Positions 3,762 through 30,299 of a DNA stretch of 35,970 nucleotides are shown here, piece after piece; the first letter of the stretch is position 1; each line of letters starts with the position of its first letter. The DNA is taken from NCBI GenBank assembly GCA_903923175.1, contig CAIXWQ010000084.1:1-35970 (forward strand). The letters are read 5' to 3'. The DNA is from an uncultured delta proteobacterium. GTDB lineage: Bacteria; Myxococcota_A; Polyangia; Polyangiales; JADJMO01. The notes under the pieces are model-generated. The model was not told the origin of the DNA. It saw only the letters and a program-made list of their open reading frames with translations, and made no database searches. Position numbers and translations under genes: made by a program.

Positions 3762-5920
3762 GCCTCCACGTGCACGCGCTCAGGGGCTGCGCGCCGACGC
3801 CGCTCGCGCACTACCTCAAGGCCCTGGGTGTCCTGCGCCTGGTCGCCACGCAACGCGACGAAGCGGCGCGGGGCTTCTGGAAGGACGACGTCTTCCACCT
3901 CGCGACCACGCTCGACCGCGACGCGCTGCTGCGGTTCTTCTGCGACGAGTACGCGCCGACGCCGATGCTCTCGCCGTGGAACGGCGGGAGCGGGTTCTAC
4001 CCGAAGGACTCCAAGGAGGGGATCAACGCGATCGCCACCTCGCCGGCCGCGCGCTTCGCGTCGTACCGCTCGGCGATCGAGCGAGCTCGCGCGCAAGTCT
4101 CGTCGCGCACCGAGAGCCCGAAGAAGGAGGCCAAGGACGCGCTGCTGGCCGAGTGCGCGCGCGAGTGGCAGGACGCCGAAGGCGCGTGGCTCGCGGCCGC
4201 CATCTCGCTCGAGCAGGACGGCACGCCGCGCTACCCGGCGCTCCTGGGGACGGGTGGCAACGACGGCCGGCTCGACTTCACCAACAACGCGATGCAGCGC
4301 CTCACCGAGCTGGTCGACGCCGCCACCGGCGAGGCACGACCGCACGCGCGACCGCTGGCGGAGCTCGCGCTCTTCGGTGGGCCCGTCCGGGGCCTCGAGA
4401 GCGGGCGAGCGATCGGGCAGTTCCTCCCGGGCGCGGCCGGCGGCGCGAACGGCACGGCCGGCTTCGACGCCGGGAGCCTCATCAACCCTTGGGACTTCGT
4501 GCTCATGCTCGAAGGCGCGCTCGTCTTCCGCGTCGCGGCGCTTCGTCGACTACAAGGCGCGGATCTCGCGCAGGCGGCAGCGCCCTTCGCGCTCCGCGGC
4601 GTGACCGAGGGCTACGCGAGCGCCTCCGACGCCGACGCCTCCGCGCGCGGCGAGCAATGGGTGCCGCTGTGGGGCCGCCCCGCGACGTTCGCCGAGACGG
4701 CGCGGATGTTCGCCGAGGCTCGGCTCTGCGGAGGTCGCCGCAGCACCCAGAGCGCGCTCGACGCGGCGCGCGCCGTCGCGCGTTTCGGGGTCGAGCGCGG
4801 CGTCACGGGCTTCGCGCGGTTCGCGTTCCTCGAGCGCAACGGGCAGGCCAACCTCGCGGTGCCGCTGGGCACGTTCGCGGTCGAGCACCGCCCCGACGCG
4901 CGGCTGCTCGACGAGCTCGACGGCTGGCTCGATCGCCTGCGCCGGGCCGCGCGGGAGAAGTCACCACCGACCTCGGTGGTGCGCTCGCTCCGGCGGATCG
5001 AGTCGCTCGCGATGGCCGCCTGCGGGCCCAGCGCGTCGCGCGAGACGTGGGCCTCGCTGGTCATCGAGCTCGGCGAGGCGGAGGACGCGTTCGCGCGGCG
5101 CGCGCACGCGACCGCCAAGTCGCACCTGCAGCCACTGCCGCTGCTGTCGGCAGGTTGGCTCGCCGCGCTCGACGACGGCTCCGCGGAGGTCCGCGTCGCG
5201 CTGGCGATCGCCTCGCAGCGTGCGCCCGTGCGGCACGGCGCGGCCGACGCGCTCGGGCCCATCCGCGCGCACTGCCTGCCGCTCGACGACTCGTTCCGAC
5301 GGTTCGCGACCGCCGGCAGCGCCGACCGGCCGCACCTCGTGGGCGATCCACGCGTCCTCTGGCGAGGCCAGGATCTGGCGAGCGATCTCGCCGCGATCGC
5401 GCTGCGGCGGGCCGTCGAGGCGCACGGCGCGGGGCACGAGGCGCTGCCGCTGATCGGGCAAGCCTTCGCCGAGCTCGCCGACGTGCGCGCGTTCGTCGAA
5501 GGGCGCCTCGACGACGCCCGCATCGCGAGCCTGGCGCGCGGGCTGATGGCGCTCGACTTCCGGCGCGAGCTGCGCGCCGGCGACGGCACTCGCGGGCCGC
5601 GCGAGCCCGCCGATCCGCTCCACGCGCTCTTCCGCGTCGCCTACCTGCCAGAGCCGGTCGGCGAGCTGCGGCCGCGCTGCGATCCGACCATCCTGCGCAC
5701 GCTCGTCGCCGGTCGGCTCACCGACGCGGTGCGCCTCGCCACCCGTCGGCTCGTCGCGATGGGAATTCGCCCGAAGCTCCAGCTCGCCGGCGGCGACGCG
5801 CGCCTCGCGCTCCGCCTCGCCGCCACCTGCGCCATCCCGATCGCGCGCGGGAACCTGCGCACGCTCATCGCCGCGATCGGCAAACCGTTCCACGCCGTCT
5901 CGACCCCGGAGGCCTCATGA
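3758..5920 (+). CDS. csx17: Csx17, large subunit (Cas8-like) of the type I-G effector
   Basis: This 720-residue protein opens with the family signature GCAPTPLAHYLKALGVLRLV (residues about 9-28) and contains LLGTGGNDGRLDFTNN, both diagnostic of Csx17 (Dpsyc subtype). In I-G systems Csx17 takes the place of Cas8, the large subunit expected to recognise the PAM and help recruit Cas3. The GTG start at 3758 overlaps the cas3 stop by four bases and is in frame with the signature. An upstream in-frame extension inside cas3 is a shadow and was discarded. The stop overlaps the csb1 ATG in the same way. Length fits the family. No truncation or frameshift is seen. Confidence 0.9.
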   Translation: MSLHVHALRGCAPTPLAHYLKALGVLRLVATQRDEAARGFWKDDVFHLATTLDRDALLRFFCDEYAPTPMLSPWNGGSGFYPKDSKEGINAIATSPAARFASYRSAIERARAQVSSRTESPKKEAKDALLAECAREWQDAEGAWLAAAISLEQDGTPRYPALLGTGGNDGRLDFTNNAMQRLTELVDAATGEARPHARPLAELALFGGPVRGLESGRAIGQFLPGAAGGANGTAGFDAGSLINPWDFVLMLEGALVFRVAALRRLQGADLAQAAAPFALRGVTEGYASASDADASARGEQWVPLWGRPATFAETARMFAEARLCGGRRSTQSALDAARAVARFGVERGVTGFARFAFLERNGQANLAVPLGTFAVEHRPDARLLDELDGWLDRLRRAAREKSPPTSVVRSLRRIESLAMAACGPSASRETWASLVIELGEAEDAFARRAHATAKSHLQPLPLLSAGWLAALDDGSAEVRVALAIASQRAPVRHGAADALGPIRAHCLPLDDSFRRFATAGSADRPHLVGDPRVLWRGQDLASDLAAIALRRAVEAHGAGHEALPLIGQAFAELADVRAFVEGRLDDARIASLARGLMALDFRRELRAGDGTRGPREPADPLHALFRVAYLPEPVGELRPRCDPTILRTLVAGRLTDAVRLATRRLVAMGIRPKLQLAGGDARLALRLAATCAIPIARGNLRTLIAAIGKPFHAVSTPEAS

Positions 5921-6885
5921 CTCTCGATCTGTCCGCGCTTCTCCCCGAAAAGGATCCCCGCCCCGCCCGCCTCCTCGTCGAGGCCGAGCTGCGGCCCGTG
6001 CAGGGCGCGCGCTTCCAGCCCACCGGCTTCCCCGATCTCGGCGCCGCAGTGTTCGATACGCGCGAGGGGCAGCGGCTGCTCGTCGAGAGCGCGCAGAGCA
6101 TGGCGAACCGCCTCGAGGCGGTCTGCTGGGATCGCGCGCGCAACGAGCTCGTACCCGAGCTCGCCGGGCTGTCGTACGTGCGCGTCGAGCGCCCAGACGG
6201 TCAGTTCCTGACCAGCTCCGTCATCGAGGCGCATCGGCTCAACTCGCCGTACATCCTCGAAGGCAAGGACCGCGGGCTGCTCAAGACGCTGGAGGCCGAG
6301 ACCAAGGGCCTCGACGAGGGCGCGCTGGAGCGCAGCAAGCTCGCGGCGATCGTGTTCGGCTACGACGCGAGCGCGCTGATCCACGGGCTGTTCCTCGCCA
6401 AGAAGGAGCTCGTGGGCGGTCGGCTGCGCATCGAGCGGGCGCTGTCGTCGTTCATCGAGGCCGAGGGGGTGCGCGTCGCGGCCTCCGGCGGCGTGAAGAA
6501 CGATCACGTCAACCCCTCGGGCGACACCGAGAAGGGCTTCGGCAACGTGCCCTTCCAGCGGGACGAGTACACCGCCGAGAAGGTCACCGCCTTCTTCTCG
6601 CTCGATCTCGCCGAGATCCGTGGCTTCGGGCTCGGGGCCGCGGGCGAGCGGCTGCTGGTCGCGCTCGCGCTCTTCAAGGTGCTCTCGTTCCTCGACGCGC
6701 CGATGCGCCTGCGCACGGCGTGCGACTTCGAGCTGCGCGGGACGCCGAAGATCGCTCGGCCCGAAGGCTTCCAGCTCCCGTCGCTCACGACCGTCCGCGG
6801 CGCGCTGCCTGCGCTGATCGACGCGTGCGCGAAGAGCTTCCGCGGGAGCAAGGGCGTCACCAAGGTCGCGTACGAGAAGGCCTGA
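5917..6885 (+). CDS. csb1: Csb1, Cas7-type backbone subunit (GSU0053 family)
   Basis: This 322-residue protein is the RAMP-fold Cas7 equivalent that polymerises along the crRNA spacer to form the Cascade backbone. Recognisable family features are the N-terminal PVQGARFQPTGFPDLG segment, the SAQSMANRLE helix, SSVIEAHRLNSPYIL, a glycine-rich stretch and the NDHVNPSG motif in the middle. It begins at an ATG overlapping the csx17 stop (ATGA) and ends four bases before csb2, so expression is coupled to both. Length matches Csb1 relatives of 300-350 residues. Confidence 0.92.
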   Translation: MTLDLSALLPEKDPRPARLLVEAELRPVQGARFQPTGFPDLGAAVFDTREGQRLLVESAQSMANRLEAVCWDRARNELVPELAGLSYVRVERPDGQFLTSSVIEAHRLNSPYILEGKDRGLLKTLEAETKGLDEGALERSKLAAIVFGYDASALIHGLFLAKKELVGGRLRIERALSSFIEAEGVRVAASGGVKNDHVNPSGDTEKGFGNVPFQRDEYTAEKVTAFFSLDLAEIRGFGLGAAGERLLVALALFKVLSFLDAPMRLRTACDFELRGTPKIARPEGFQLPSLTTVRGALPALIDACAKSFRGSKGVTKVAYEKA

Positions 6886-6889
6886 CGCC

Positions 6890-8488
6890 ATGCTCGCCAT
6901 CGCGGCTACGTTTCCGGCGGGGCGCTACCACGCGACGCCGTGGGGGATGCACGTCAACGAGGGGGCGATCGAGTGGCCGCCGAGCCCCTGGCGCTTCCTG
7001 CGCGCGCTGATGGCGACGGGCTTCGGTCGCCTCGGCTGGTCGAGCGTGCCCGCGGAGGCGCGGTCGCTCTTCGAGTCGCTCGCGTCGACGCTGCCGACCT
7101 ATCACTTGCCGGAGGCGCAGGCCGCGCACACGCGCCACTACATGCCGCTGTACGGCGGCAACACGACCGAGGTGATCGACGCCTTCGCCTACGTGGGCGA
7201 CGAGCCGCTGGTCCTGGCCTACGACGTCACGCTCGAAGGGGCCGAGCGCACGATGCTCGACGCGCTGCTCGGCGCCATGCCGTACCTCGGCCGCGCGGAG
7301 TCCTGGGTCGAGGCGCGACGCGTCGACGCGGTGCCCGGCGGGCTGCGCCCGTGCGTGCCTGCCGAGACGATCCCTGGCCCGGGGCTCGAGCGCGTCTCGC
7401 TGCTCGCGCCCGAGACCGCGGGGCGCTACGCGGCCTTCCGCGAGCAGGCCATCGCGCGCGAGCTGGGCGCGGCTAGCGCGGCTAGCGCGGCGAGCGCGGC
7501 GGCGAAGCCCGATGGCAGCAAGCCCCCGAAGAAGGGCGCTGCGCCGGCGCGCGCGAAGCTCGAAGGGCTCTTCCCACGCGACCTGATCGAGGTGCTCCGG
7601 ATCGACACGCCGACGCTCCAGAAGCAGGGATGGAGCGAGCCGCCGGGGACGCGCTGGGTGTCGTACTGGCGCGCGGCGGGGGCGCTCCGGGTCGGTCCGC
7701 GCGCGGCGCCGGCGCGACGGCACGGCGACCACGCCGACACGGCGCTGCTCGCGCTCTCGTCGGACGCCGTGCGCTCGGACGTGCTGCCGCCGATGCGCGA
7801 CGCCGTGCGCCGCCTCGGCGCGCTGCACGACGCGCTGGTGCGCGCCTCGGATCGGGGCGAGGCCGGGCCGGCGATCGTGTTCACCGGGCGCGTCGACGGT
7901 CAGCCGGTGCCGGCGCACGCGCACGCGAGCCTGATCCCGCTCTCGCTCGGCCGGCGGGAGGACCGGATGGACCACGTCCTGATCCACGCGCCGATGGGGC
8001 TCGACGGCGACGCGCGCGACGCGATCGCCCGCGTTCGCAAGACGTGGGCGGCGGGGCTGCCGGACATCTTCGTGTCGCTCGCCGGGGTCGGCCGCAGAGA
8101 GTCGTTCGCGTCGCTGGTGCCCGAGCTGGGTTCGAGCGCGATCTGGCGCTCGGCGACGCCATTCGTGCTGCCGCGTCATCTCAAGGCGAAGGGGAAGGAC
8201 ACGCTGGTCGGGCAGGTGCAGGCGGAGCTCGCGACGCGGGCGCTGCCTCCGGCCAAGCTCGTCGAGGTGAAGCTGGCGGACGGCTCGTACGTCGACGCCG
8301 GCCAGCTCGCGAGCGGGCCGCTGCGGCTCTCGCTCGACTTCCGACACTTCCGCACGGCGCGCGACGGTCGCCCGCCGCCCCAGAGCTCGACGTACGCGCT
8401 GCGCCTGACGTTCGACGCCACGCTGCGCGGCCCGATCGCGCTCGGGTACGCGGCGCACTTCGGGCTGGGCGTGCTGCGGCCGGAGTGA
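6890..8488 (+). CDS. csb2: Csb2, Cas5-Cas6 fusion (GSU0054 family)
   Basis: A 532-residue protein fusing a Cas5-like N-terminal part, which caps the 5' handle of the crRNA, to a Cas6-like C-terminal part, which cuts the repeat beside its hairpin. The N-terminus (FPAGRYHATPW, then EWPPSPWRFLRAL) is typical of the GSU0054 family. A low-complexity Ala/Ser linker of repeated AAS units (about residues 193-205), then a Lys/Pro-rich stretch, separates the two parts. The linker DNA is itself repetitive (7468-7500). The C-terminal part ends in a glycine-rich loop (GYAAHFGLGVL) as in Cas6 folds. I could not assign the catalytic residues by eye. Csb2 replaces a stand-alone cas6 here; none is present elsewhere. 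Confidence 0.9.
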   Translation: MLAIAATFPAGRYHATPWGMHVNEGAIEWPPSPWRFLRALMATGFGRLGWSSVPAEARSLFESLASTLPTYHLPEAQAAHTRHYMPLYGGNTTEVIDAFAYVGDEPLVLAYDVTLEGAERTMLDALLGAMPYLGRAESWVEARRVDAVPGGLRPCVPAETIPGPGLERVSLLAPETAGRYAAFREQAIARELGAASAASAASAAAKPDGSKPPKKGAAPARAKLEGLFPRDLIEVLRIDTPTLQKQGWSEPPGTRWVSYWRAAGALRVGPRAAPARRHGDHADTALLALSSDAVRSDVLPPMRDAVRRLGALHDALVRASDRGEAGPAIVFTGRVDGQPVPAHAHASLIPLSLGRREDRMDHVLIHAPMGLDGDARDAIARVRKTWAAGLPDIFVSLAGVGRRESFASLVPELGSSAIWRSATPFVLPRHLKAKGKDTLVGQVQAELATRALPPAKLVEVKLADGSYVDAGQLASGPLRLSLDFRHFRTARDGRPPPQSSTYALRLTFDATLRGPIALGYAAHFGLGVLRPE

Positions 8489-8492
8489 GCCG

Positions 8493-10349
8493 GTGGCGAG
8501 CCCGACCGAGGTCCGGGGCGGCGGTCAGCAGGGCGGGCCGCCCGGACACGCCGCTGACCAGCCGCGCGCGATCGAGGCGCCGGCGCTGGTGCCCGCCAGG
8601 ATGGTGAACGAGGTGCTCTACTGCGAGCGCATCGTTCACCTCGAGTGGGCCCAGCAGGAGTTCGAGCACAACGCGTACACGGCGGAGGGGAACGCGGTGC
8701 ATGCCCGCATCGACGCCGGGGGCGGCGCGTTGCCTGCGCCGCCGGCCTGGCGCGAGGTGGACGAGGAGGAGCCCGACGAGCCCGCGCCTTTCACGGCGCG
8801 ATCGGTGTGGCTGTCGTCCGAGCACCTGGGGCTCACGGCGAAGATCGATCTCGTCGAGGGCGACGCGGACGGTGCGGTCGTGCCGGTGGAGTACAAGCGG
8901 GGGGCCGCGCCCGACGAGCCCGCGGGGGCGTTCCTGCCGGAGCGCGCGCAGCTCTGCGCGCAGGTGCTGCTGCTGCGCGAGCATGGGTACCGCTCTGACG
9001 AGGCGGCGATCTGGTTCGCGAGGTCCCGCCGCCGCGTCGCGATCGTGATCGACGACGCGCTGATCGCGACGACCCTCGACGCCATCGCGCGAGCGCGCGC
9101 GGTCGTCTCGCGCGCGGAGCCGCCGCCGCCGCTCGAAGACAGCCCGAAGTGCGCGGGTTGCTCGCTGGTCGGCATCTGCCTCCCGGACGAGACGAACCTG
9201 CTCCGACGCGACCGCGGCGAGGCGCTCGAGCCGGCGACGGACGAGGACGTGGTCCCAGAGGAGCCGCTCGATCCGGATCCTTGGGGGCTTGCGGGCTCGG
9301 ATCGCTCGCTGGATCTCGGCTTGCGGCGCCTGCACCCGGCGCGCGACGACCGCCTTCCGCTGTACGTGCAGGAGCAAGGGGCGCGGGTGGGGCTGGATGG
9401 CGAGTGCCTGCGGGTGCAGTCGAAGGCGGGGTCGATCGTCGCGCGACTCGCGAACACCTCTCAGGTCGCGCTGATGGGGAACGTGCAGCTGTCGACGCAG
9501 GCGATGCGCGCGTGTCTGGAGCGCGACATCCCGATCTCGTTCTTCAGCTACGGCGGCTGGCACTATGGCCGCGCGGTGGGGCACGACTCCAAGAACGTCG
9601 AGCTACGGATCGCCCAGCACGCGGCCGCGGCCGACGCCTCGACGTGCCTGGCGCTCGCGAGGCGCTTCGTCGTCGCCAAGATCCGGAACGCGCGGACGAT
9701 GCTGCGGCGCAACCACGTCGAGGCGCTCGAGGTGGACCTGGGCGAGCTCGACCGCTTGGGCCACGAGGCCGCGACGGCGCCCGCGCTCGCGTCGCTTCTC
9801 GGCTACGAGGGGACGGCGGCGCGGCTCTACTTCGGCCGATTCACCGGCATGCTGAGGGGCGACGCAGCGGCGACGGGCGCGTTCGATCTGGAGGGGCGCA
9901 ACCGGCGGCCGCCGCGCGATCCCATCAACGCGCTGCTCTCGTTCGCCTACGCGCTGCTGGCGAAGGACTTCGCCGTCGCGCTGAGCGCGGTCGGGCTCGA
10001 TCCGCTCCTCGGCTTCTACCACCAGCCGCGGTTCGGGCGCCCGGCGCTCGCGCTGGATTTGATGGAGGAGTTCCGGCCGATCGTGGGTGACTCGGTGGTG
10101 ATCGGGGCGATCAACAACGGCGTGTTCGCGGCCTCGGATTTCGTGGTCACACCCGCAGCCGCCTCCCTGACCCCCGCAGCCCGCAAGCGGCTGATCGCGG
10201 CCTACGAGCGCCGCATGGATCAGCTGGTGACGCACCCCGTGTTCGGGTACCGCATCTCGTACCGACGCGTCTTGGAGGTGCAGGCGCGCCTGCTCGCGCG
10301 CTTGTTGCTGGGCGAGATCCGCGAGTACCCGTCGTTCCTGACACGGTGA
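8493..10349 (+). CDS. cas4-cas1: Cas4-Cas1 fusion, spacer-acquisition nuclease/integrase
   Basis: A 618-residue fusion. The Cas4 half (about 35-240) is a RecB-like nuclease: Cys44 in EVLYCERI, the PVEYKRG motif with Glu133 and Lys135, and a C-terminal cluster Cys220, Cys223, Cys229, giving the four cysteines of the usual Fe-S cluster. The Cas1 half (about 275-618) has the metal-binding triad Glu439 (LLGYEG), His510 (GFYHQP) and Glu525 (LMEEFRP). Cas4 trims prespacers and selects those with the right PAM; Cas1 with Cas2 inserts them at the leader end. Cas4-Cas1 fusion is a hallmark of I-U/I-G. The GTG at 8493 gives a 36-residue Gly/Pro-rich preface; the ATG at 8601 is an alternative start just before the Cas4 core. 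Confidence 0.93.
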   Translation: MASPTEVRGGGQQGGPPGHAADQPRAIEAPALVPARMVNEVLYCERIVHLEWAQQEFEHNAYTAEGNAVHARIDAGGGALPAPPAWREVDEEEPDEPAPFTARSVWLSSEHLGLTAKIDLVEGDADGAVVPVEYKRGAAPDEPAGAFLPERAQLCAQVLLLREHGYRSDEAAIWFARSRRRVAIVIDDALIATTLDAIARARAVVSRAEPPPPLEDSPKCAGCSLVGICLPDETNLLRRDRGEALEPATDEDVVPEEPLDPDPWGLAGSDRSLDLGLRRLHPARDDRLPLYVQEQGARVGLDGECLRVQSKAGSIVARLANTSQVALMGNVQLSTQAMRACLERDIPISFFSYGGWHYGRAVGHDSKNVELRIAQHAAAADASTCLALARRFVVAKIRNARTMLRRNHVEALEVDLGELDRLGHEAATAPALASLLGYEGTAARLYFGRFTGMLRGDAAATGAFDLEGRNRRPPRDPINALLSFAYALLAKDFAVALSAVGLDPLLGFYHQPRFGRPALALDLMEEFRPIVGDSVVIGAINNGVFAASDFVVTPAAASLTPAARKRLIAAYERRMDQLVTHPVFGYRISYRRVLEVQARLLARLLLGEIREYPSFLTR

Positions 10350-10357
10350 GGTAGGGC

Positions 10358-10648
10358 ATGCGGCAGACCTACGTCGTGAGCTACGACATCTGTGACCCGA
10401 AGCGCCTGCGCAAGGTCTTCAAGACGCTCCGCGGCTACGGCGACCATCTTCAGCTCTCGGTGTTCCGCTGCGAGCTGAGCGCCCGCGAGCTGGTGGAGTT
10501 GCGGACGAAGCTCGCGGCGGTCATGCATCAGGGCGAGGATCAGGTCCTCTTCGTGGACGTCGGGCCTGCGGAGGGGCGCGGCGCCGGCTCCATCTCCTCG
10601 CTGGGGCGGACGTACACTCACCCGGAACGGCATGCGCTCGTCGTCTGA
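10358..10648 (+). CDS. cas2: Cas2, adaptation complex subunit
   Basis: A 96-residue protein of normal Cas2 length, starting YVVSYDICDPKRLRKV with the conserved Asp10 after the first beta strand, followed by the usual LQLSVFRCEL strand. Cas2 dimers bridge two Cas1 dimers in the spacer integration complex. GAGGTAGGG lies just upstream of the ATG. It is the last cas gene and directly precedes the leader, the classic arrangement for acquisition at the leader-repeat junction. Confidence 0.96.
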   Translation: MRQTYVVSYDICDPKRLRKVFKTLRGYGDHLQLSVFRCELSARELVELRTKLAAVMHQGEDQVLFVDVGPAEGRGAGSISSLGRTYTHPERHALVV

Positions 10649-10849
10649 GCTCTCTCCGGGCGAGCGGTCCGGTGCCGCTCGAACCCCGGGGGGCGCTCGC
10701 AAGGCGCGCTTGGTCTTTGAAAACCCGTGGTTTCGAAGAGGTCCCGCGCGAACGGTGTGGATGCACATCGTGCGAAAAGGAGGCGCGCGCGGGACCTCTC
10801 GCGAACCGGGCGGCAAGCGCGCGGGATCGTTGGTAGGATCGGGGGGGCT
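10649..10849 (+). promoter_or_regulatory. CRISPR leader with a perfect 14-bp inverted repeat
   Basis: Non-coding stretch between cas2 and the first repeat. The left part has the locally A/T-richer GGTCTTTGAAAACC (10712-10725), which resembles leader-type promoter or integration signals. AGAGGTCCCGCGCG at 10737-10750 is perfectly complementary to CGCGCGGGACCTCT at 10786-10799. The 35 bases between include a small GCAC/GTGC hairpin. The inverted repeat could bind a regulator, position Cas1-Cas2, or form a hairpin in the pre-crRNA. Its assignment as leader rests on position, repeat orientation and lack of an ORF. The transcription start is not identified. Confidence 0.75.
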
Positions 10850-13236
10850 CTCTCCGTCGCTGAAGGGCGACGGCCACGTTGAAGCGGTTCGCGTTCGGCG
10901 CGTCTCGCGAGCCGTGCGACCTCTCCGTCGCTGAAGGGCGACGGCCACGTTGAAGCCGTCATGCCGAAGCTTCGGGCGGCGCTCGGGCGCATGCTCTCCG
11001 TCGCTGAAGGGCGACGGCCACGTTGAAGCGTCTTCTCGTCCTTCTTCACGAGCACCTCGAAGCGCGCCTCTCCGTCGCTGAAGGGCGACGGCCACGTTGA
11101 AGCCTACGGCGTACCTGCACAATGAACTGACCTCCTACCACTCTCCGTCGCTGAAGGGCGACGGCCACGTTGAAGCCGCATCGCCTGGCGTCGGTCGGCG
11201 CGGGCCCGCTCCTCTCCCTCGCTGAAGGGCGACGGCCACGTTGAAGCGGCTTCGACACGAAGCACGGCATGCACCTCGTACGGCTCTCCGTCGCTGAAGG
11301 GCGACGGCCACGTTGAAGCGCATGGGCTGGACTCACGCGAAGTTTGCGGTTTTCGCGCCTCTCCGTCGCTGAAGGGCGACGGCCACGTTGAAGCGCTGAC
11401 CTCTCCCGCGATCGCTGACCGCCCACGAAGGACTCTCCGTCGCTGAAGGGCGACGGCCACGTTGAAGCACGCAGACGCCGGACGTGCCCGTCAGCATCGA
11501 GCACTCTCCGTCGCTGAAGGGCGACGGCCACGTTGAAGCCGGTGTCAGGGTGTGCTTTCCGGGAAAGGAATCCGTCTCTCCGTCGCTGAAGGGCGACGGC
11601 CACGTTGAAGCACGTCGTCGACGTTCGCGGTGCCGAAGTGCTCCTTGCTCTCCGTCGCTGAAGGGCGACGGCCACGTTGAAGCAGGCTTGGCCATGGGTG
11701 GCGGCGCACCGTGACGCGAGGGCTCTCCGTCGCTGAAGGGCGACGGCCACGTTGAAGCCGGCTGCCCCCGCGTCGCGTCGTAGCGCTTCCACGCCTCTCC
11801 GTCGCTGAAGGGCGACGGCCACGTTGAAGCTCGTCGCCGTCCAACACCCCGACGGCGGGGAAGAGCCTCTCCGTCGCTGAAGGGCGACGGCCACGTTGAA
11901 GCTCGATGGGTCTGCTGACGAAGGCCGACCCAGAGTGGACTCTCCGTCGCTGAAGGGCGACGGCCACGTTGAAGCCTCAAGAGACGCCGACGGCGAGAAG
12001 CGGAGAGCCCCCCGCCTCTCCGTCGCTGAAGGGCGACGGCCACGTTGAAGCAGCACGGCGCCCGACTGCACGGCGAGGTGCACGAGCTCTCCGTCGCTGA
12101 AGGGCGACGGCCACGTTGAAGCTAGTGCGCGAGAAGCTTCGCGAGAGCGAGCACGATCCTCTCCGTCGCTGAAGGGCGACGGCCACGTTGAAGCAGGAAG
12201 ATCGAGTGAATCACAGCAGCCCCCGATCGCTCTCCGTCGCTGAAGGGCGACGGCCACGTTGAAGCCCGATGCACTGCCACGCGAGGTACGGCACGCGGTC
12301 CGCTCTCCGTCGCTGAAGGGCGACGGCCACGTTGAAGCGGCCTGGTGGTCGGCGCCAGCCGCTATTCGACGCGGTTGGGAAGCTCGAGCCGTCTCTCCGT
12401 CGCTGAAGGGCGACGGCCACGTTGAAGCGGCCTGGTGGTCGGCGCGGGCGAGACGGACTCGGCGCTCTCCGTCGCTGAAGGGCGACGGCCACGTTGAAGC
12501 CACCAGTAGGGCCGCGTGAGCACGAACTTCGCGCCGGCTCTCCGTCGCTGAAGGGCGACGGCCACGTTGAAGCCCGTCGTTGTTCGGGTAGCGGTCGATC
12601 GAGTGCTTCGAGCTCTCCGTCGCTGAAGGGCGACGGCCACGTTGAAGCACGCCCGCGCCGGCGATGCGCCGGTCGAGCTCCACCGCGCTCTCCGTCGCTG
12701 AAGGGCGACGGCCACGTTGAAGCCTCGGCGCGTGTGGCCGGCCCGTGCGGCCGTCGATCACCTCTCCGTCGCTGAAGGGCGACGGCCACGTTGAAGCTCG
12801 GCCATTCCGAGCGCCGCCTCCCGCCACGGCCCCCTCTCCGTCGCTGAAGGGCGACGGCCACGTTGAAGCCGATTCGCACGCCGTCAAGGACTGCACATCC
12901 GTCACGCCTCTCCGTCGCTGAAGGGCGACGGCCACGTTGAAGCAGCGCAAACACAAGCGGTGGCGACGGCGCACTGCGCGACTCTCCGTCGCTGAAGGGC
13001 GACGGCCACGTTGAAGCCGCCGTATGTGCGACGAGTGGATCGAGGGCGTCGCGCCTCTCCGTCGCTGAAGGGCGACGGCCACGTTGAAGCCTCAACCCCG
13101 AGATCGACGTCGAGGGGCTCGCGCCGTCTCTCCGTCGCTGAAGGGCGACGGCCACGTTGAAGCCCGGATGCGGCGCAATGGTGGAGACTGGACCCCAGGA
13201 CTCTCCGTCGCTGAAGGGCGACGGCCACGTTGAAGC
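10850..13236 (+). CRISPR. Type I-G CRISPR array, 33 repeats of 36 bp and 32 spacers
   Basis: The repeat begins CTCTCCGTCGC, has the loop TGAAGG, the arm GCGACGG, then CCAC and ends GTTGAAGC. CCGTCGC and GCGACGG form a 7-bp hairpin, and the last eight bases resemble the usual crRNA 5' handle (compare ATTGAAAC), so transcription is left to right from the cas2-side leader. Spacers are 35-40 bp except spacer 21 (12339-12392, 54 bp). Repeat 6 (11212-11247) has one substitution, G to C at its seventh base; the others I checked are identical, including the terminal one. No typical degenerate trailer repeat is seen: the array stops abruptly against a tRNA-Leu sequence. By eye I found no spacer matching the prophage in this window. 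Confidence 0.98.
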
Positions 13237-13237
13237 G

Positions 13238-13312
13238 GCGGACTAGGCAGTCGCGCCGGATTTAGGTTCCGGCGCCGAGAGGCTTGCGGGTTCAAGTCCC
13301 GCCCGTCGCACC
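13238..13312 (+). tRNA. tRNA-Leu(UAG)-like sequence lacking its own 5' acceptor strand
   Basis: From the D arm to the 3' end this is a normal tRNA-Leu: D stem GCG/CGC (13238-13240, 13252-13254), anticodon stem CCGGA/TCCGG around loop TTTAGGT with anticodon TAG (13263-13265), long variable arm GCC-GAGA-GGC, T stem GCGGG/CCCGC with loop TTCAAGT, acceptor 3' strand CCGTCGC (13303-13309), discriminator A and CC. The nine bases where positions 1-9 should be (13229-13237) belong to the last CRISPR repeat and do not pair. However, GCGACGG at 13218-13224 inside that repeat is perfectly complementary to the acceptor 3' strand, leaving 11 extra nucleotides before the D stem. Most likely this is a tRNA fragment used as an attachment site, not a working tRNA. 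Confidence 0.75.
13238..13312. other. Probable phage attachment site (tRNA-Leu core)
   Basis: The tRNA-Leu 3' portion abuts a convergent tyrosine integrase gene whose stop codon lies inside the D loop (13243-13245). Tyrosine integrases commonly recombine within tRNA 3' halves, and the recombined core then sits next to int. Core length cannot be measured because the other junction is outside the window. Orientation (tRNA 3' end facing the phage) fits a left junction or an unintegrated attP. A normal left junction would show an intact tRNA, which is not the case here. Confidence 0.7.
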
Positions 13313-14610
13313 CCTTGTTTTGCCGTGGTCTGCATTGCTCCGGATTTCCCTCCGTCGAGCGACGGGTCGCTGGCGACGATTGCCGACAACTCAGGGATGG
13401 CTTCGCTCAGTGGGAGCAGCTCCCCGAGGCCGAGCTCTTCGGCCTGGCGGGCCGCTCGGCGGTAGCGCTGGATCATCACCGACGACTTGTGGCCGGTTCG
13501 GTCGGAGACCCACTGCTCGGTCTTCCCGTTGGCGAGCGAGAGGGTGATGAAGGTCGCGCGGAGGTCGTGCGCTCGGAGGCGCATCCGCTTCTCGGTCGCC
13601 TCGAAGAGGACCGCGCGATCGATCCCCGCGGGCTTGAGGTCGCCGCGGAGCTGGCTCGCGAGGTGGCGCACGTTCGGGGGGACGATGCCGTCGCCGAAGA
13701 CGTAGGAGCCCTCGGTCCGCATCTTCCGCCAGGCGCGCAGGGCGGTCGCGACGCCGGGGGAGAGCGCCCAGGCGCGGGGGTCGTCGGTCTTGTTCTCCTC
13801 GAGGCGGAGCACCCCGCGGCGCAGGTCGATGTCGACCCACTCGATGAGCGCGGCCTCCGAGGCACGCGTCCCCTCGCGGTCGAGGAAGCCCTCGAGCATG
13901 CGGCGCTCGAGGGGGACGGCGGCGCACGCGAGGAGCGCGGCGTCCTCCTCGGGGTAGAGGTAGAGGCCGAGGCGCGGCTTGAGCGCTTTCGGGAGCCAGC
14001 CGAACGGGATCGGCGAGTGCGTGATCAGCTTCGCCGGGTAGACGGCGAGGCGGCAGATCCGAACGATCAGCTGCGCGATGTGCCGGCGCGACCGCTTGGG
14101 CATCGGGCGGCGCATGATCTCCTCGGCGTGGTCGAGGGTGAACGCCTTGATCGGGAGGTCGACGACGTAGGGCAGCACGTACGACGAGAGCCGGGCCCGG
14201 TTGCAGTTCTTGTCGTGGTCGACCGGGCGCACGTGATCGGGGTAGGCGCGGTGCAGGTCGCCCGAGAGCCACTTCTCGGCGAGCGTCTTGAAGGTCTCGC
14301 CCGCGGCGACCGGGATGGCGTCGCGCTCCTCGAGCCCATCGAGCACCCCCTCGAGCACGCGCAGCGCGGCGGCGAGGCGATCGCCCGCGGCGGCGGCGAG
14401 CTGCTCGAGCATCGGATCGATCAAGTCCGAGCGGCCCGCCTTCCGGAGCCGATGGACGGCCGACGCGAGGATCGCCCCGCGCTCGGTCGCCTCGGTCTCG
14501 GTCGTGCAGGTCGGCATCGCCTGCGACTTGCGCTTCTTCGGCGCGATCGAGAGCGAGACGTACCAGGTCCCCCGGCTCTCGTAGACGCTGCCGGTCGCCT
14601 TGCGGGCCAT
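13243..14610 (-). CDS. int: Tyrosine site-specific recombinase (phage integrase)
   Basis: A 455-residue integrase. The N-terminus (GSVYESRGTWYVSLSI) is the arm-binding domain; the catalytic domain carries Arg249 (EGTRASE), His348 and Arg351 (HDLR), His374 (RTGHKS) and the nucleophile Tyr383 (QRYRR). It cuts and rejoins DNA at the adjacent tRNA-Leu core to integrate or excise the phage. The ATG at 14610 overlaps the stop of the excisionase-like gene (ATGA). The last 22 residues (434-455, containing RAGLEPASLSAPEPK) are encoded antisense to the tRNA sequence and the stop is in its D loop. A much longer upstream extension of the frame is a shadow of the neighbouring genes. Confidence 0.93.
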   Translation of the reverse strand: MARKATGSVYESRGTWYVSLSIAPKKRKSQAMPTCTTETEATERGAILASAVHRLRKAGRSDLIDPMLEQLAAAAGDRLAAALRVLEGVLDGLEERDAIPVAAGETFKTLAEKWLSGDLHRAYPDHVRPVDHDKNCNRARLSSYVLPYVVDLPIKAFTLDHAEEIMRRPMPKRSRRHIAQLIVRICRLAVYPAKLITHSPIPFGWLPKALKPRLGLYLYPEEDAALLACAAVPLERRMLEGFLDREGTRASEAALIEWVDIDLRRGVLRLEENKTDDPRAWALSPGVATALRAWRKMRTEGSYVFGDGIVPPNVRHLASQLRGDLKPAGIDRAVLFEATEKRMRLRAHDLRATFITLSLANGKTEQWVSDRTGHKSSVMIQRYRRAARQAEELGLGELLPLSEAIPELSAIVASDPSLDGGKSGAMQTTAKQGVRRAGLEPASLSAPEPKSGATA

Positions 14611-15026
14611 CAGGCGCGCCCCCCGCTGCGGGTCTTTAGCCCGAGCTTGCGGCGCACCTGGTCGTCGAGCTCGCCAGCGCCCGGGATGACCGGCACGACC
14701 GTCGGCTTCGCCTGCGACCCACCCGAGAGCAGCCACGCGAGCACGTCCGCGCGGCGCGCGAAGACCCGCTTGCCGTGGCGGTAGCTCGGGAAGCGGCCGA
14801 GCCGGGCGGCCTTCAGGTAGCGCGCGCGCTCGCACGGCGCCGAGACCTGGTCGACGACCTCGTCGGCCGAGGGGCCCTGCGACGCGGCGATCCGCGGAAC
14901 CATCCGCTCGATCAGCGCGTCCGCGATCAGATCCACGACCTCGGAGAGCCCGAGGCGCGGCGCGCGCGGCGCGGGGTGCACGTCCGCGACGGCGGCTGCT
15001 GCTGCTCGACTCGCTCGCTCGGACAT
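14610..15026 (-). CDS. Excisionase-like DNA-binding protein
   Basis: This 138-residue protein has a C-terminal half resembling MerR/AlpA-type excisionase folds: RYLKAARLGRFPSYRHGKRV followed by FARRADVLAWLL (helix, winged loop, helix). The N-terminal part is Ala-rich and unrecognised. Directional factors of this type bend attachment-site DNA and steer integrase towards excision. The gene is immediately upstream of int on the same strand and overlaps its start by four bases, the usual int-xis pairing. The ATG at 15026 has GGGGAGG upstream. The excisionase role is inferred from fold and position. Confidence 0.65.
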   Translation of the reverse strand: MSERASRAAAAAVADVHPAPRAPRLGLSEVVDLIADALIERMVPRIAASQGPSADEVVDQVSAPCERARYLKAARLGRFPSYRHGKRVFARRADVLAWLLSGGSQAKPTVVPVIPGAGELDDQVRRKLGLKTRSGGRA

Positions 15027-27180: not shown

Positions 27181-27603
27181 ATGGCGAGCAAGACGAAGAA
27201 GCAGGCGAAGATCGCGGCCACGTTCAAGCGGCCCGCGAAGGTCGAGACCCGCCAGCCGACGCAGCAGGTGCGCCAGGGGGACGTCTTCCTGATGCGCACC
27301 GACCGGGTGAGCGGGGAGATCGAACCGATGCCGCGCGATCCGCGTGGGATCGTGATCGCCGAGGGGGAGACGAGCGCGCACTACCACGCGGTGATCGGTG
27401 GTGACGCGAAGCTCTCGCGGTTCAAGGACGGACGCGCGGAGCAGATGCTCGAGGTCACCAGCGACGCCGAGCTGCGCGTGATCGGGGGCGGCTCGGGGGC
27501 GGTCGAGCGGCACACGCCGATCACGATCACGCCGGGCAAGTACCTCGTGCGCATCCAGCGCGCGTGGGACTCCGCGAACGTCGCGCGCCAGGTCCAGGAC
27601 TGA
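27181..27603 (+). CDS. Phage protein paired with DUF6745-type protein
   Basis: A 140-residue protein: basic N-terminus, then VRQGDVFLMRTDR, EGETSAHYHAVIGG (two His residues close together) and HTPITITPGKYLVRIQRAWD, a beta-rich, cupin-like pattern. It immediately precedes the large repeat-containing gene and the two are usually linked in related phages, to my knowledge. Function unknown. Confidence 0.65.
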   Translation: MASKTKKQAKIAATFKRPAKVETRQPTQQVRQGDVFLMRTDRVSGEIEPMPRDPRGIVIAEGETSAHYHAVIGGDAKLSRFKDGRAEQMLEVTSDAELRVIGGGSGAVERHTPITITPGKYLVRIQRAWDSANVARQVQD

Positions 27604-27646: not shown

Positions 27647-29011
27647 ATGACGAAGACGACCGCGAAGCCGAAGATCTACACGCTCACCGACGAACACCGC
27701 GCGCAGCTCGATCCGTGGGCGAAGAAGTGGATCGCCAACGCGATGTCCACCAAGCCGATGGACTCCACCGATCGCGCTGCGATGACGGAGGCCGTTCACG
27801 GCATGTACCGCGCTGCGGGCCTCGAACTGCCGAAGGTGATCGTGTGGGTGCCGTCGCCAATCGTGGCGCAGTTCGCCGCGGGGTTTGCGAGCGCCATCAT
27901 CCATCTTCGGACGACCGCGACGCGTTCGTCCGGCGACGTCAGAGCCGCGACCAGAGCCGCGACCGACGCCGCGACCTACGCCGCGACCAGAGCCGCGACC
28001 AGAGCCGCGACCGACGCCGCGACCTACGCCGCGACCGACGCCGCGACCAGAGCCGCGACCAGAGCCGCGACCAGAGCCGCGACCAGAGCCGCGACCGACG
28101 CCGCGACCGACGCCGCGACCAGAGCCGCGACCAGAGCCGCGACCAGAGCCGCGACCTACGCCGCGACCTACGCCGCGACCTACGCCGCGACCGACGCCGC
28201 GACCGACGCCGCGACCGACGAGATCGATCGTTCGTGGTGCACGCCGGTGGGGCCGCAGATGGCAATGCTCGCGCGCGAGCTCGGTGGCTCCGATTCGGCG
28301 CTACTGCTCTCCGTCGCAGCGACCGCGTGGAACATGCGCGATCCGGGCAACCAGTGGTCGAGCTGGCCGGCGCTCCTGTCGTTCTTCCGCCACGTCGCGC
28401 ACCTCGACGAGTGCGGGGTCGACTACAGCAAGTGGGCGCACTTCGAAGCTGCCGCGATCCACGCGGGGCCGCGCTTCATGCATCGCGATTTCTGCATCGT
28501 CAGCGACCGGCCCGAGGTGCTCACCGTCGACGCCGAGAACCGCCCGCACAACGACACGGGGCCATTCTGCCGGTGGCGCGACGGGATCTCGCTCTACGCG
28601 ATCCACGGCGTCTACGTGCCGCGGTTCGTCGTCGAGAATCCCGAGCAGATCACGGTCGAGAAGATCCACGCCGAGCGAAATGAGGAGCTGAAGCGCATCA
28701 TGATCGAGCGCTACGGGCTCACGCGCTACGTGCGCGACGCGAAGTTCAAGATCCTCGACGAGGACAAGGACCCGCTCGGGCAGTCGCGCCGCCTGCTGCA
28801 GCACGGCGATCTCCTCGTCGTCGAGCTCGTGAACAGCACGGTCGACGCGGACGGCACGCGGCGCGTCTACCACGTGCCGTGCGAGGGCGAGCTGCGGCCG
28901 ATGCTGCCCGACCGCACCCTCGGCGTGGCCCAGAAGCTCACGTGCCAGAACGCGGTCGCTTCGACCTTCGGGCTCACCGGAGATCGGTATCGGCCCGACG
29001 TCGAGACGTGA
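27647..29011 (+). CDS. DUF6745-like protein with 23 tetrapeptide repeats
   Basis: A 454-residue protein. Residues 1-98 form a helical N-terminal domain. Residues 99-190 are 23 consecutive tetrapeptides X-Ala-Ala-Thr, where X is Arg, Asp or Tyr. The C-terminal domain (about 195-454) contains [47 protein letters not shown] and a final [16 protein letters not shown], matching the DUF6745 pattern. The repeat is in perfect frame and contains no stop. Function unknown; a solenoid-like or extended helical spacer between two domains is inferred. Ribosome site GAGAGGAGC precedes the ATG. Confidence 0.75.
27941..28216 (+). repeat. Twenty-three 12-bp in-frame tandem repeats
   Basis: Each unit is NNN-GCC-GCG-ACC. 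Only the first codon changes: AGA (Arg), GAC (Asp) or TAC (Tyr). The order of residues is R R D Y R R D Y D, R R R R D D, R R R Y Y Y D D. The nine constant bases look identical in every unit. AGA is a rare codon in DNA this rich in G and C. Copy number is expected to vary by replication slippage in 12-bp steps, which would keep the frame. Confidence 0.95.
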
Positions 29012-29415
29012 TGCCCCTCGTCGTCCTCACGGCGCGCGTCGGGTATCGCGATCGCGACAGCTTCGACGTCACGGCTTCGACGGGCGGCGCGGGCTGGGGC
29101 GCGCCGTTCGCTCCGTCGTGGCACCTGCTGCGTCCCCTCCTCGAGCTGCAGCGGCTCGAGGATCTCAGCGTGGAGGACTGGAGCCGGTGCGTCGACGCCT
29201 ACACGCGGGAGATGCGCGCCAGCTACCGCGCGAACCGATGGGCGTGGGATCGAATTCTGGCGCGACGGCGCGCGGTCCTCCTCTGCTCCTGCGCGACCCC
29301 TGTCCGCTGCCACCGGCGCGTGCTGGCGGAGATCCTCGTGCAGCTCGGGGCCGCGTACGGCGGGGAGCTGCGTCCGGTTCCGGCGCAGGCCTCGCTGCCG
29401 GGGCTCGGGCGATGA
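29011..29415 (+). CDS. DUF488-like phage protein (paralogue A)
   Basis: A 134-residue protein. The C-terminal part carries ASYRANRWAWDRILARRRAVLLCSCATPVRCHRRVLAEIL, matching the Cys and Cys-His-Arg signature of DUF488-type proteins. Its start overlaps the stop of the repeat protein (TGATG). A clear relative is at 29811-30299. The catalytic role of the cysteines is unknown. Confidence 0.7.
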   Translation: MPLVVLTARVGYRDRDSFDVTASTGGAGWGAPFAPSWHLLRPLLELQRLEDLSVEDWSRCVDAYTREMRASYRANRWAWDRILARRRAVLLCSCATPVRCHRRVLAEILVQLGAAYGGELRPVPAQASLPGLGR

Positions 29416-29810: not shown

Positions 29811-30299
29811 ATGCCGCTCGAGGTCCTCACCTGTCGCATCGGCACGCGCGCCGCGCGCGATCCCGACGTGCTCGTGATCACCCGCGAGGAGGCCGACGCC
29901 GAGGGTCAGCCGGGCGTCTTCGCGCCGAGCTGGGCGATCCTGCGGCCCGTCCTCGACGCGCGCGCGCGGCAGCGCGGCGGCTTCGTCTTCGGCGGCAGCG
30001 ACGAGGAGCGCGCGGCCGCGCTCACGGAGGCGCGCGAGCTCGAGCTGGCCGCCTGGCGCGTCTACGTCCCCGCCTTCCTCGAGGAGATGCGGGCGAGCTA
30101 CCGGCGCCACCGCGTGGCGTGGGAGCGCCTGCTCGCGCGCGATCGCGTCGTCCTCGCCTGCGCCTGCAAGGCCCCCGAGCGCTGCCACCGCACGATCCTC
30201 GCGACGGCCATCCTGCCGAAGCTGGGCGCCGTCTACGCGGGGGAGCGGGCGTCGAGGCGCGACGGCGTGCACCTGGAGCTCGTCGAGGTCGCGACGTGA
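29811..30299 (+). CDS. DUF488-like phage protein (paralogue B)
   Basis: A 162-residue protein sharing with the gene at 29011 an N-terminal MPLEVLTCRIG, the APSWAILRPVL segment and the C-terminal EMRASYRRHRVAWERLLARD, ACACKAPERCHRTIL. A central Ala/Glu-rich insertion makes it longer. Probably a local duplication with divergence, since the two flank one gene. Confidence 0.7.
   Translation: MPLEVLTCRIGTRAARDPDVLVITREEADAEGQPGVFAPSWAILRPVLDARARQRGGFVFGGSDEERAAALTEARELELAAWRVYVPAFLEEMRASYRRHRVAWERLLARDRVVLACACKAPERCHRTILATAILPKLGAVYAGERASRRDGVHLELVEVAT

What the first reader, a model, noticed from the sequence alone, without database searches (positions are those of the whole stretch)
27941..28216. 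Three-letter tetrapeptide code: 23 units of (R/D/Y)-Ala-Ala-Thr
Within the 12-bp units only the first codon varies and only among AGA, GAC and TAC, in an irregular order. Replication slippage would be expected to change copy number in frame, and the irregular order suggests selection or repeated local shuffling. The array separates two conserved domains and could be a length-tunable spacer, a charged helical rod, or a surface that binds DNA or ice-like regular lattices. I know no described role.
Basis: seen in the sequence. Interest (0 to 1): 0.5.

Follow-up and report, generated by a model that had tools for sequence, protein, structure and literature searches.

The report
Shuffled four-residue repeat in phage protein
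A prophage protein carries 23 near-identical four-residue units in which one residue changes from unit to unit; many other phage proteins have the same reshuffling design, and one of them is reported to help a phage overcome bacterial defences.

Summary
In detail: 27941-28216 holds 23 exact 12-bp units, [AGA|GAC|TAC]GCCGCGACC, found nowhere else in the 10.7 Mb assembly. They lie inside a 454-aa DUF6745 gene of a prophage-like element. They are not an oddity of this gene. By unit motif, 44 of 50 viral-contig DUF6745 loci carry tetrapeptide units before the same domain, against 1 of 80 loci from bacterial genomes. Within arrays, scaffold codons are almost always identical down to the wobble base. 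The most variable codon shows 3 synonymous against 93 amino-acid changes (31 arrays), where neutrality predicts about 20 synonymous. Related arrays use different scaffold wobble bases, so arrays are homogenised internally. An M. abscessus prophage and a viral contig with 3 kb of identical flanks have 45 and 18 units. So repeat turnover shuffles the array while selection favours variety. Mycobacteriophage Tweety gp54 has the same design with unrelated ends; reviews describe it as a counter-defence protein tuned by repeat number. My best reading is a counter-defence protein of that kind, with the array setting its target range. Array design, turnover and selection are shown across the class; the function of this gene is inferred.

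The parts
27941..28216 (+). tetrapeptide array, 23 x 12 bp, [R/D/Y]-Ala-Ala-Thr
27647..29011 (+). gene of the array protein, 454 aa, ATG to stop
   Evidence: relatives
27647..27940 (+). N-terminal domain (about 95 aa), shared with array-bearing relatives
   Evidence: alignment; model, confident for about residues 10-90; N-domain HMM hits
28442..29008 (+). DUF6745 domain (PF20530)
   Evidence: Pfam E 1.4e-28 over residues 266-454; genome search match at these coordinates
27181..27603 (+). upstream partner gene, 140 aa, small protein with a 'QGDV' motif; homologues precede many DUF6745 genes
   Evidence: found by an HMM built without it, E 1.5e-13; 31% identity to the gene before the M. abscessus prophage homologue; no Pfam family
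13243..14619 (-). context: tyrosine integrase, its end overlapping a tRNA-Leu gene (13231-13313)

Best explanation
The gene encodes a phage-type DUF6745 protein made of a fixed N-terminal domain, a hypervariable tetrapeptide array and a fixed C-terminal DUF6745 domain. The 12-bp units are kept alike by slippage or unequal recombination, which also changes their number and order. Selection preserves residues 3 and 4 as a scaffold (here residues 2-4) and favours variety at residue 1 and, in many arrays, residue 2. Shown: the anatomy in the window, and the turnover and selection across relatives. Inferred: as in Tweety gp54, the array sets how the two end domains engage a defence protein of the host or of a resident prophage, so frequent array changes let the phage retune its counter-defence. 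Length would set spacing; the identity and order of residue 1 would add specificity.
For: Units before the C-terminal domain in 44 of 50 viral-contig DUF6745 loci by unit motif, or 38 of 50 by a stricter lag-4 score (L032 also scored there but its repeat precedes the gene's apparent start). The same two tests find 1 of 80 bacterial-genome loci, L069. At the most variable codon, 3 synonymous against 93 amino-acid changes in 31 arrays (20.5 synonymous expected); at the least variable codon, 6 and 0 (outlier L037 left out, with it 7 against 104, 23.7 expected, and 7 and 1). A separate set of 33 XAAT arrays gives 7 against 120, 26.5 expected. The Ala-Thr codon pair agrees at 0.998 within and 0.244 between ten related arrays. 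L012 (M. abscessus prophage) and viral contig L019: 1500 of 1500 bases identical on each side, 45 against 18 units. The window lies inside a clade of 15 rows, 14 with AT-type arrays, support 100/99. In four Tweety-family records titled complete genome, gp54 has 46, 36, 28 and 14 units next to 330 of 330 identical bases, and variable codons keep their third base there. Tweety escape mutants with changed repeat number overcome a prophage defence (review passages in PMC9262239 and PMC8549241).
Against: Tweety gp54 has no detectable homology to DUF6745 outside the array, so its function cannot be transferred by descent. No defence target is known, and PADLOC gives no match for this protein. Copies without arrays exist in 79 of 80 bacterial-genome loci, so the domain has some other basic role. 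In the window alone only two codon changes are visible, too few for a test of selection, and no block duplication is detectable (P 0.92). The assembly has 1422 contigs, so the copy number of 23 could be an assembly product. L037 has 14 synonymous among 41 unit changes. A few scaffold codons do vary within arrays. L012 shares no more order with L019 or L020 than shuffling gives (P 0.19 and 0.85).
Confidence: 0.45

Rival explanations
1. The array is only a length-tunable linker or rod between the two domains; residue 1 does not matter.
For: Low model confidence and helix-like drawing of the array. The reviews explain the Tweety mutants by repeat number.
Against: Residue 1 shows a strong excess of amino-acid changes and few synonymous ones, which a neutral linker position would not. 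All six combinations of residues 1 and 2 occur in L012, L031 and L050.
Confidence: 0.2
2. A neutral minisatellite in a dispensable gene: slippage in a GC-rich repeat, with chance founder variants.
For: Order in the window looks random. Phages can do without such a gene: PMC2884959 notes that Llij lacks the Tweety gene (passage).
Against: Neutral change would be about a quarter synonymous; observed 9 of 145 codon changes in 31 arrays (37.7 expected). Ala-Thr at residues 3-4 is kept over a clade in which relatives share about 40-54% identity with the window protein.
Confidence: 0.1
3. The array is a binding surface for a repetitive target such as nucleic acid, cell-wall polymer or another helix, not linked to defence.
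For: A regularly spaced variable residue, most often Arg, Gly, Trp, Asp or Tyr (partly because two scan patterns demanded NGG codons), suits contacts with a target.
Against: No fold or partner evidence: no PDB match at E 0.001 or better. Scaffold types differ widely between relatives.
Confidence: 0.2
4. Targeted mutagenesis (a diversity-generating retroelement) writes codon 1.
For: Variation is concentrated at first and second bases of particular codons.
Against: No template copy elsewhere in the assembly. The only RVT_1 hit is on another contig, C956. Adenines in the scaffold codons CAG and ACC are nearly always unchanged (CAG changes in single units of L022, L024 and L037).
Confidence: 0.03

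Closest known systems
Mycobacteriophage Tweety gp54 and relatives (PMC2884959, PMC9262239, PMC8549241: passages read)
   Same: 12-bp tetrapeptide array between unique end domains. Wobble bases of the variable codons are fixed and first and second bases vary. Copy number differs between close relatives. The 2007 paper already reads the pattern as consistent with selection for variation.
   Different: No detectable homology in the end domains; units mostly [G/W/Q/R/E][S/Y]AA, not [R/D/Y]AAT; found in mycobacteriophages; its function was tested by others, this one was not.
DUF6745 genes of Actinomycetota genomes with the upstream 'QGDV' gene
   Same: Same C-terminal domain family and same gene pair (74 of 77 loci with enough upstream sequence).
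   Different: No array in 79 of 80.
Bordetella phage BMP-1 bbp36 variable region 2 (known to me only from the passage in PMC2884959)
   Same: In-gene tandem repeat with 9-20 copies depending on isolate.
   Different: 24-bp element; not compared here.
TAL effectors and PRDM9 zinc fingers (recalled, no call)
   Same: Nearly identical repeat units with variation concentrated at contact residues, as a comparison of design.
   Different: Much longer units, known fold, DNA binding; no homology claimed.

Membership tests
DUF6745 (PF20530) | match to the Pfam model above its curated cut-off | tested here: met
   100 bits against a cut-off of 27, residues 266-454
AT-array clade of phage DUF6745 proteins | placement in the clade on a tree of the C-terminal domain | tested here: met
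   15 rows, 14 labelled AT, support 100/99; the 15th, L066, is cut off and holds a remnant of such units by eye
Tweety gp54 family | in-frame tetrapeptide array with variation concentrated in one or two codons | tested here: met
Tweety gp54 family | homologous end domains | tested here: not met
   no Pfam match for gp54 and hhalign probability 0.6%, E 0.09
Tweety gp54 family | copy number varies between close relatives | tested here: inconclusive
   met in other DUF6745 loci; no second allele of the window's gene was found
Tweety gp54 family | counter-defence activity tuned by the array | not testable with these tools
   needs phage and defence assays
Diversity-generating retroelement target | template repeat and nearby reverse transcriptase | tested here: not met
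   the assembly is fragmented
Known anti-phage defence proteins (PADLOC) | match to a PADLOC model | tested here: not met
   0 families at E 0.01 for the array protein and its partner gene; the relative L012 has one weak match, PDC-S55, E 0.0047

The most novel reading that the evidence does not exclude
Phages share a general, fast-evolving recognition module: a tetrapeptide array whose scaffold is held constant by concerted evolution and whose first residue, with the second in many types, is shuffled like a code under diversifying selection. It has been fitted into at least three protein backgrounds without detectable relation: DUF6745, Tweety gp54, and a group ending in a 'SFDGxxWRLH' segment. 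It would be a reverse-transcriptase-free way for phages to vary protein contacts, used against bacterial defences.
Probability: 0.35. Interest if true: 0.85.

Novelty: new variant of a known kind. Interest (0 to 1): 0.6.

Why it matters
A single described oddity, Tweety gp54, becomes one example of a widespread phage design with a measurable signature of selection. If the arrays set the target of counter-defence, their sequences record which defences phages have met, and the link between array order and target can be tested directly in laboratory strains. It would also give phages a simple, recombination-driven way to diversify a protein.

Tried and rejected
Ice or DNA lattice binding: no good support; scaffold types such as xAAT, xDQL, xASV and xQNI have little in common beyond the period of four. 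The antifreeze row (Z 3.7, rmsd 40.6 over 142 residues) is told above. Pentapeptide-repeat membership: the period is 4, not 5. Retroelement-driven mutagenesis: no template, no nearby reverse transcriptase. Fold searches: Foldseek on PDB with the window model gave no match at E 0.001 or better; VIA-align's best Z was 4.0, a partial C-terminal match to topoisomerase I that I cannot tell from noise; the viral library, searched with the second model (L023), returned at E 0.001 or better two DUF6745 proteins and two uncharacterised fragments. Pfam matches on the array of L012 (DUF2939) look like repeat artefacts. Three of the nine Microcystis-phage records were read and have no array. The first viral scan with the window protein alone found no relative.

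Limits of the counts. The 50 viral loci include near-duplicates and cut-off genes. In one search (194 arrays, 81 synonymous against 852, 244.7 expected) the QL and SV scan patterns fixed the wobble base of codon 1, so I rely on the homology-found set and the wobble-free XAAT set. From 42 homology-found arrays I dropped five under 10 units (L036, L044, L052, L053, L056), then five near-duplicates (L019, L020, L021, L051, L057), leaving 32; L037 was left out in one version and both results are given. The simulation assumes equal mutation rates and minimal numbers of changes. Of the 69 SV frames without a DUF6745 hit, 26 are cut off at a contig end. In one search the anchor was not found in four of nine Tweety relatives (Melissauren88, Wee, SG4, Squirty) and Shauna1 gave 321 of 330, so the identity claim covers Tweety, DeadP, Taj and KristaRAM only; my bounds give Tweety 46 units where the paper gives 48. 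The within-array agreement is for units drawn with replacement. The tree used 18 of 79 array-less genome rows, drawn at random.

Full report
What is there. The window holds 23 perfect 12-bp units at 27941-28216, [AGA|GAC|TAC]GCCGCGACC, coding (R/D/Y)-Ala-Ala-Thr. They lie in a 454-aa gene (27647-29011) whose residues 266-454 match Pfam DUF6745 at E 1.4e-28. Three successive units occur nowhere else in the assembly. The order of the three letters is compatible with chance.

Where it lies. The surroundings look like an integrated phage: an integrase at 13243-14619 whose end overlaps a tRNA-Leu at 13231-13313, an anti-repressor, a phage nucleotide phosphatase and a DNA methyltransferase, and a GH25 endolysin. 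I did not look for both attachment sites. A second DUF6745 gene without an array lies on contig C160 of the same assembly. In both loci a small 'QGDV' gene precedes it; an HMM built without the window's copy finds that copy at E 1.5e-13. DUF6745 is rare in the phylum: 4 of 377 genomes at E 0.001, 3 of 377 over the cut-off, this one included; among 56 relatives, this one included, only this genome has it.

Relatives. Two protein-guided scans of viral contigs gave 50 loci. By unit motif 44 of 50 carry tetrapeptide units before the C-terminal domain; by a stricter lag-4 score 38 of 50. In the genome collection both tests find 1 of 80 loci, L069. The units differ: xAAT, xSAT, xDQL, xGQL, xDQV, xDAV, xSAV, xASV, xANL, xQNI, xSSL. 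On a tree of the C-terminal domain the unit type follows descent: 19 changes for nine labels against a shuffled mean of 43. The window falls in a clade of 15 rows, 14 labelled AT, with support 100/99.

Turnover. The M. abscessus prophage locus L012 and the viral contig locus L019 are identical over 1500 bases on each side, yet hold 45 and 18 units and share only the first five and last three. L021, with identical downstream flank, holds 20 units of a cut-off array and shares runs of 8 and 7 units with L012 and L019 (shuffle P 0.002 and 0.004). L020 is 99.6-100% identical in BLAST-aligned flanks (698 and 300 bases; ungapped over longer stretches 1417 of 1500 and 1017 of 1111) and has 61 units in an order no more like L012's than chance (P 0.85). 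Short-read assembly could alter such arrays. But in records titled complete genome, Tweety, DeadP, Taj and KristaRAM have gp54 arrays of 46, 36, 28 and 14 units beside 330 of 330 identical bases. Nine of 29 arrays of 15 or more units contain a repeated block longer than shuffling gives, as block duplication would leave; the window's is not among them.

Selection. Within arrays the scaffold codons are nearly always the same down to the wobble base. In the AT clade the Ala-Thr codon pair agrees at 0.998 within arrays and 0.244 between them (ten arrays, 45 pairs), the mark of concerted evolution. Over 31 arrays found by protein homology, one per near-identical family and without the outlier L037, the most variable codon shows 3 synonymous and 93 amino-acid changes, where 20.5 synonymous are expected. 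The second codon shows 0 and 38 (9.1 expected) and the least variable codon 6 and 0 (1.7 expected). With L037 the first figure is 7 and 104 (23.7 expected). A separate set of 33 XAAT arrays, found by a pattern that leaves wobble bases free, gives 7 and 120 (26.5 expected) at the most variable codon and 5 and 37 (10.1 expected, P 0.04) at the second. For the most variable codon none of 5000 simulations reached the observed value in any of the three versions. The counts assume equal mutation rates and minimal change. The window alone, with two changes, cannot be tested.

Structure. Two AlphaFold models, of the window protein and of the xDQV-type protein of L023, give confident end domains and arrays mostly at pLDDT 30-50, drawn as helix. 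That gives no sign of a globular array but does not establish a helix. No informative fold match was found.

Other backgrounds. In a DNA-pattern scan for XAAT units, 60 frames had at least 8 units, 39 of them varied, and 34 of the 39 have DUF6745-protein N- or C-domain hits. For the QL type it is 87 of 99 array frames, for the SV type 56 of 125. Of the 69 SV frames without a hit, 32 read SFDGxxWRLH after the array (39 with a looser motif), with several kinds of N-terminus by eye. Seven non-DUF6745 array proteins from the QL and SV scans have no Pfam family at E 0.01. One XAAT exception, L150, has a DUF7666-like start below the cut-off (E 0.0026).

The gene pair. The 'QGDV' gene stands close upstream on the same strand in 74 of 77 genome loci with enough upstream sequence, and in 14 of 31 such loci of the homology-found viral set (45 of 98 with the pattern-found viral loci, which overlap). 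Its function is unknown.

What is known. No paper in the held library mentions DUF6745. Searches for tetrapeptide or hypervariable repeats in phages led to Tweety gp54 and, in the listings seen, to no survey of such arrays. From passages of PMC2884959: 48 units, third codon positions invariant, pattern consistent with selection for variation, function unknown. From passages of PMC9262239 and PMC8549241: gp54 is a counter-defence protein, and escape mutants with more or fewer repeats overcome the Phrann or MichelleMyBell prophage defences. The primary paper is not held. Gp54 shares the array design but not, detectably, the end domains.

Reading. The anatomy is shown in the window. The turnover and the diversifying selection are shown for the class. 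That this gene is a counter-defence protein tuned by its array is inferred from Tweety gp54 by likeness of design, at about 0.45. The main doubts are the lack of homology to gp54 outside the array, the existence of array-less DUF6745 genes in bacterial genomes, and the absence of any known target.

Noticed in passing
window 1176-13237: A cas operon (Cas3, a GSU0053-type Cas protein, a Cas4-Cas1 fusion and Cas2 by Pfam) followed by a large array of a roughly 36-base repeat at 10849-13237, which ends beside the tRNA-Leu and integrase of the prophage-like element.
   Followed up: partly
window 29011-29412 and 29811-30296: Two neighbouring genes of the DUF488-N3a family follow the array gene, with weak PADLOC candidate matches.
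   Followed up: no
L001 (G000 contig C160): A second DUF6745 gene with its 'QGDV' partner and no array in the same assembly.
   Followed up: partly
L017: A DUF6745 domain in another genome of the phylum follows repeats that read, by eye, like leucine-rich repeats: a different repeat in the same position.
   Followed up: no
L375, L419, L424, L450 and others: A family of viral proteins with SV-type tetrapeptide arrays and a C-terminal segment reading SFDGxxWRLH in many of them, without Pfam match in those tested.
   Followed up: partly
loci: The 'QGDV' gene and DUF6745 form a conserved pair in Actinomycetota genomes (74 of 77 loci with enough upstream sequence); function unknown.
   Followed up: partly
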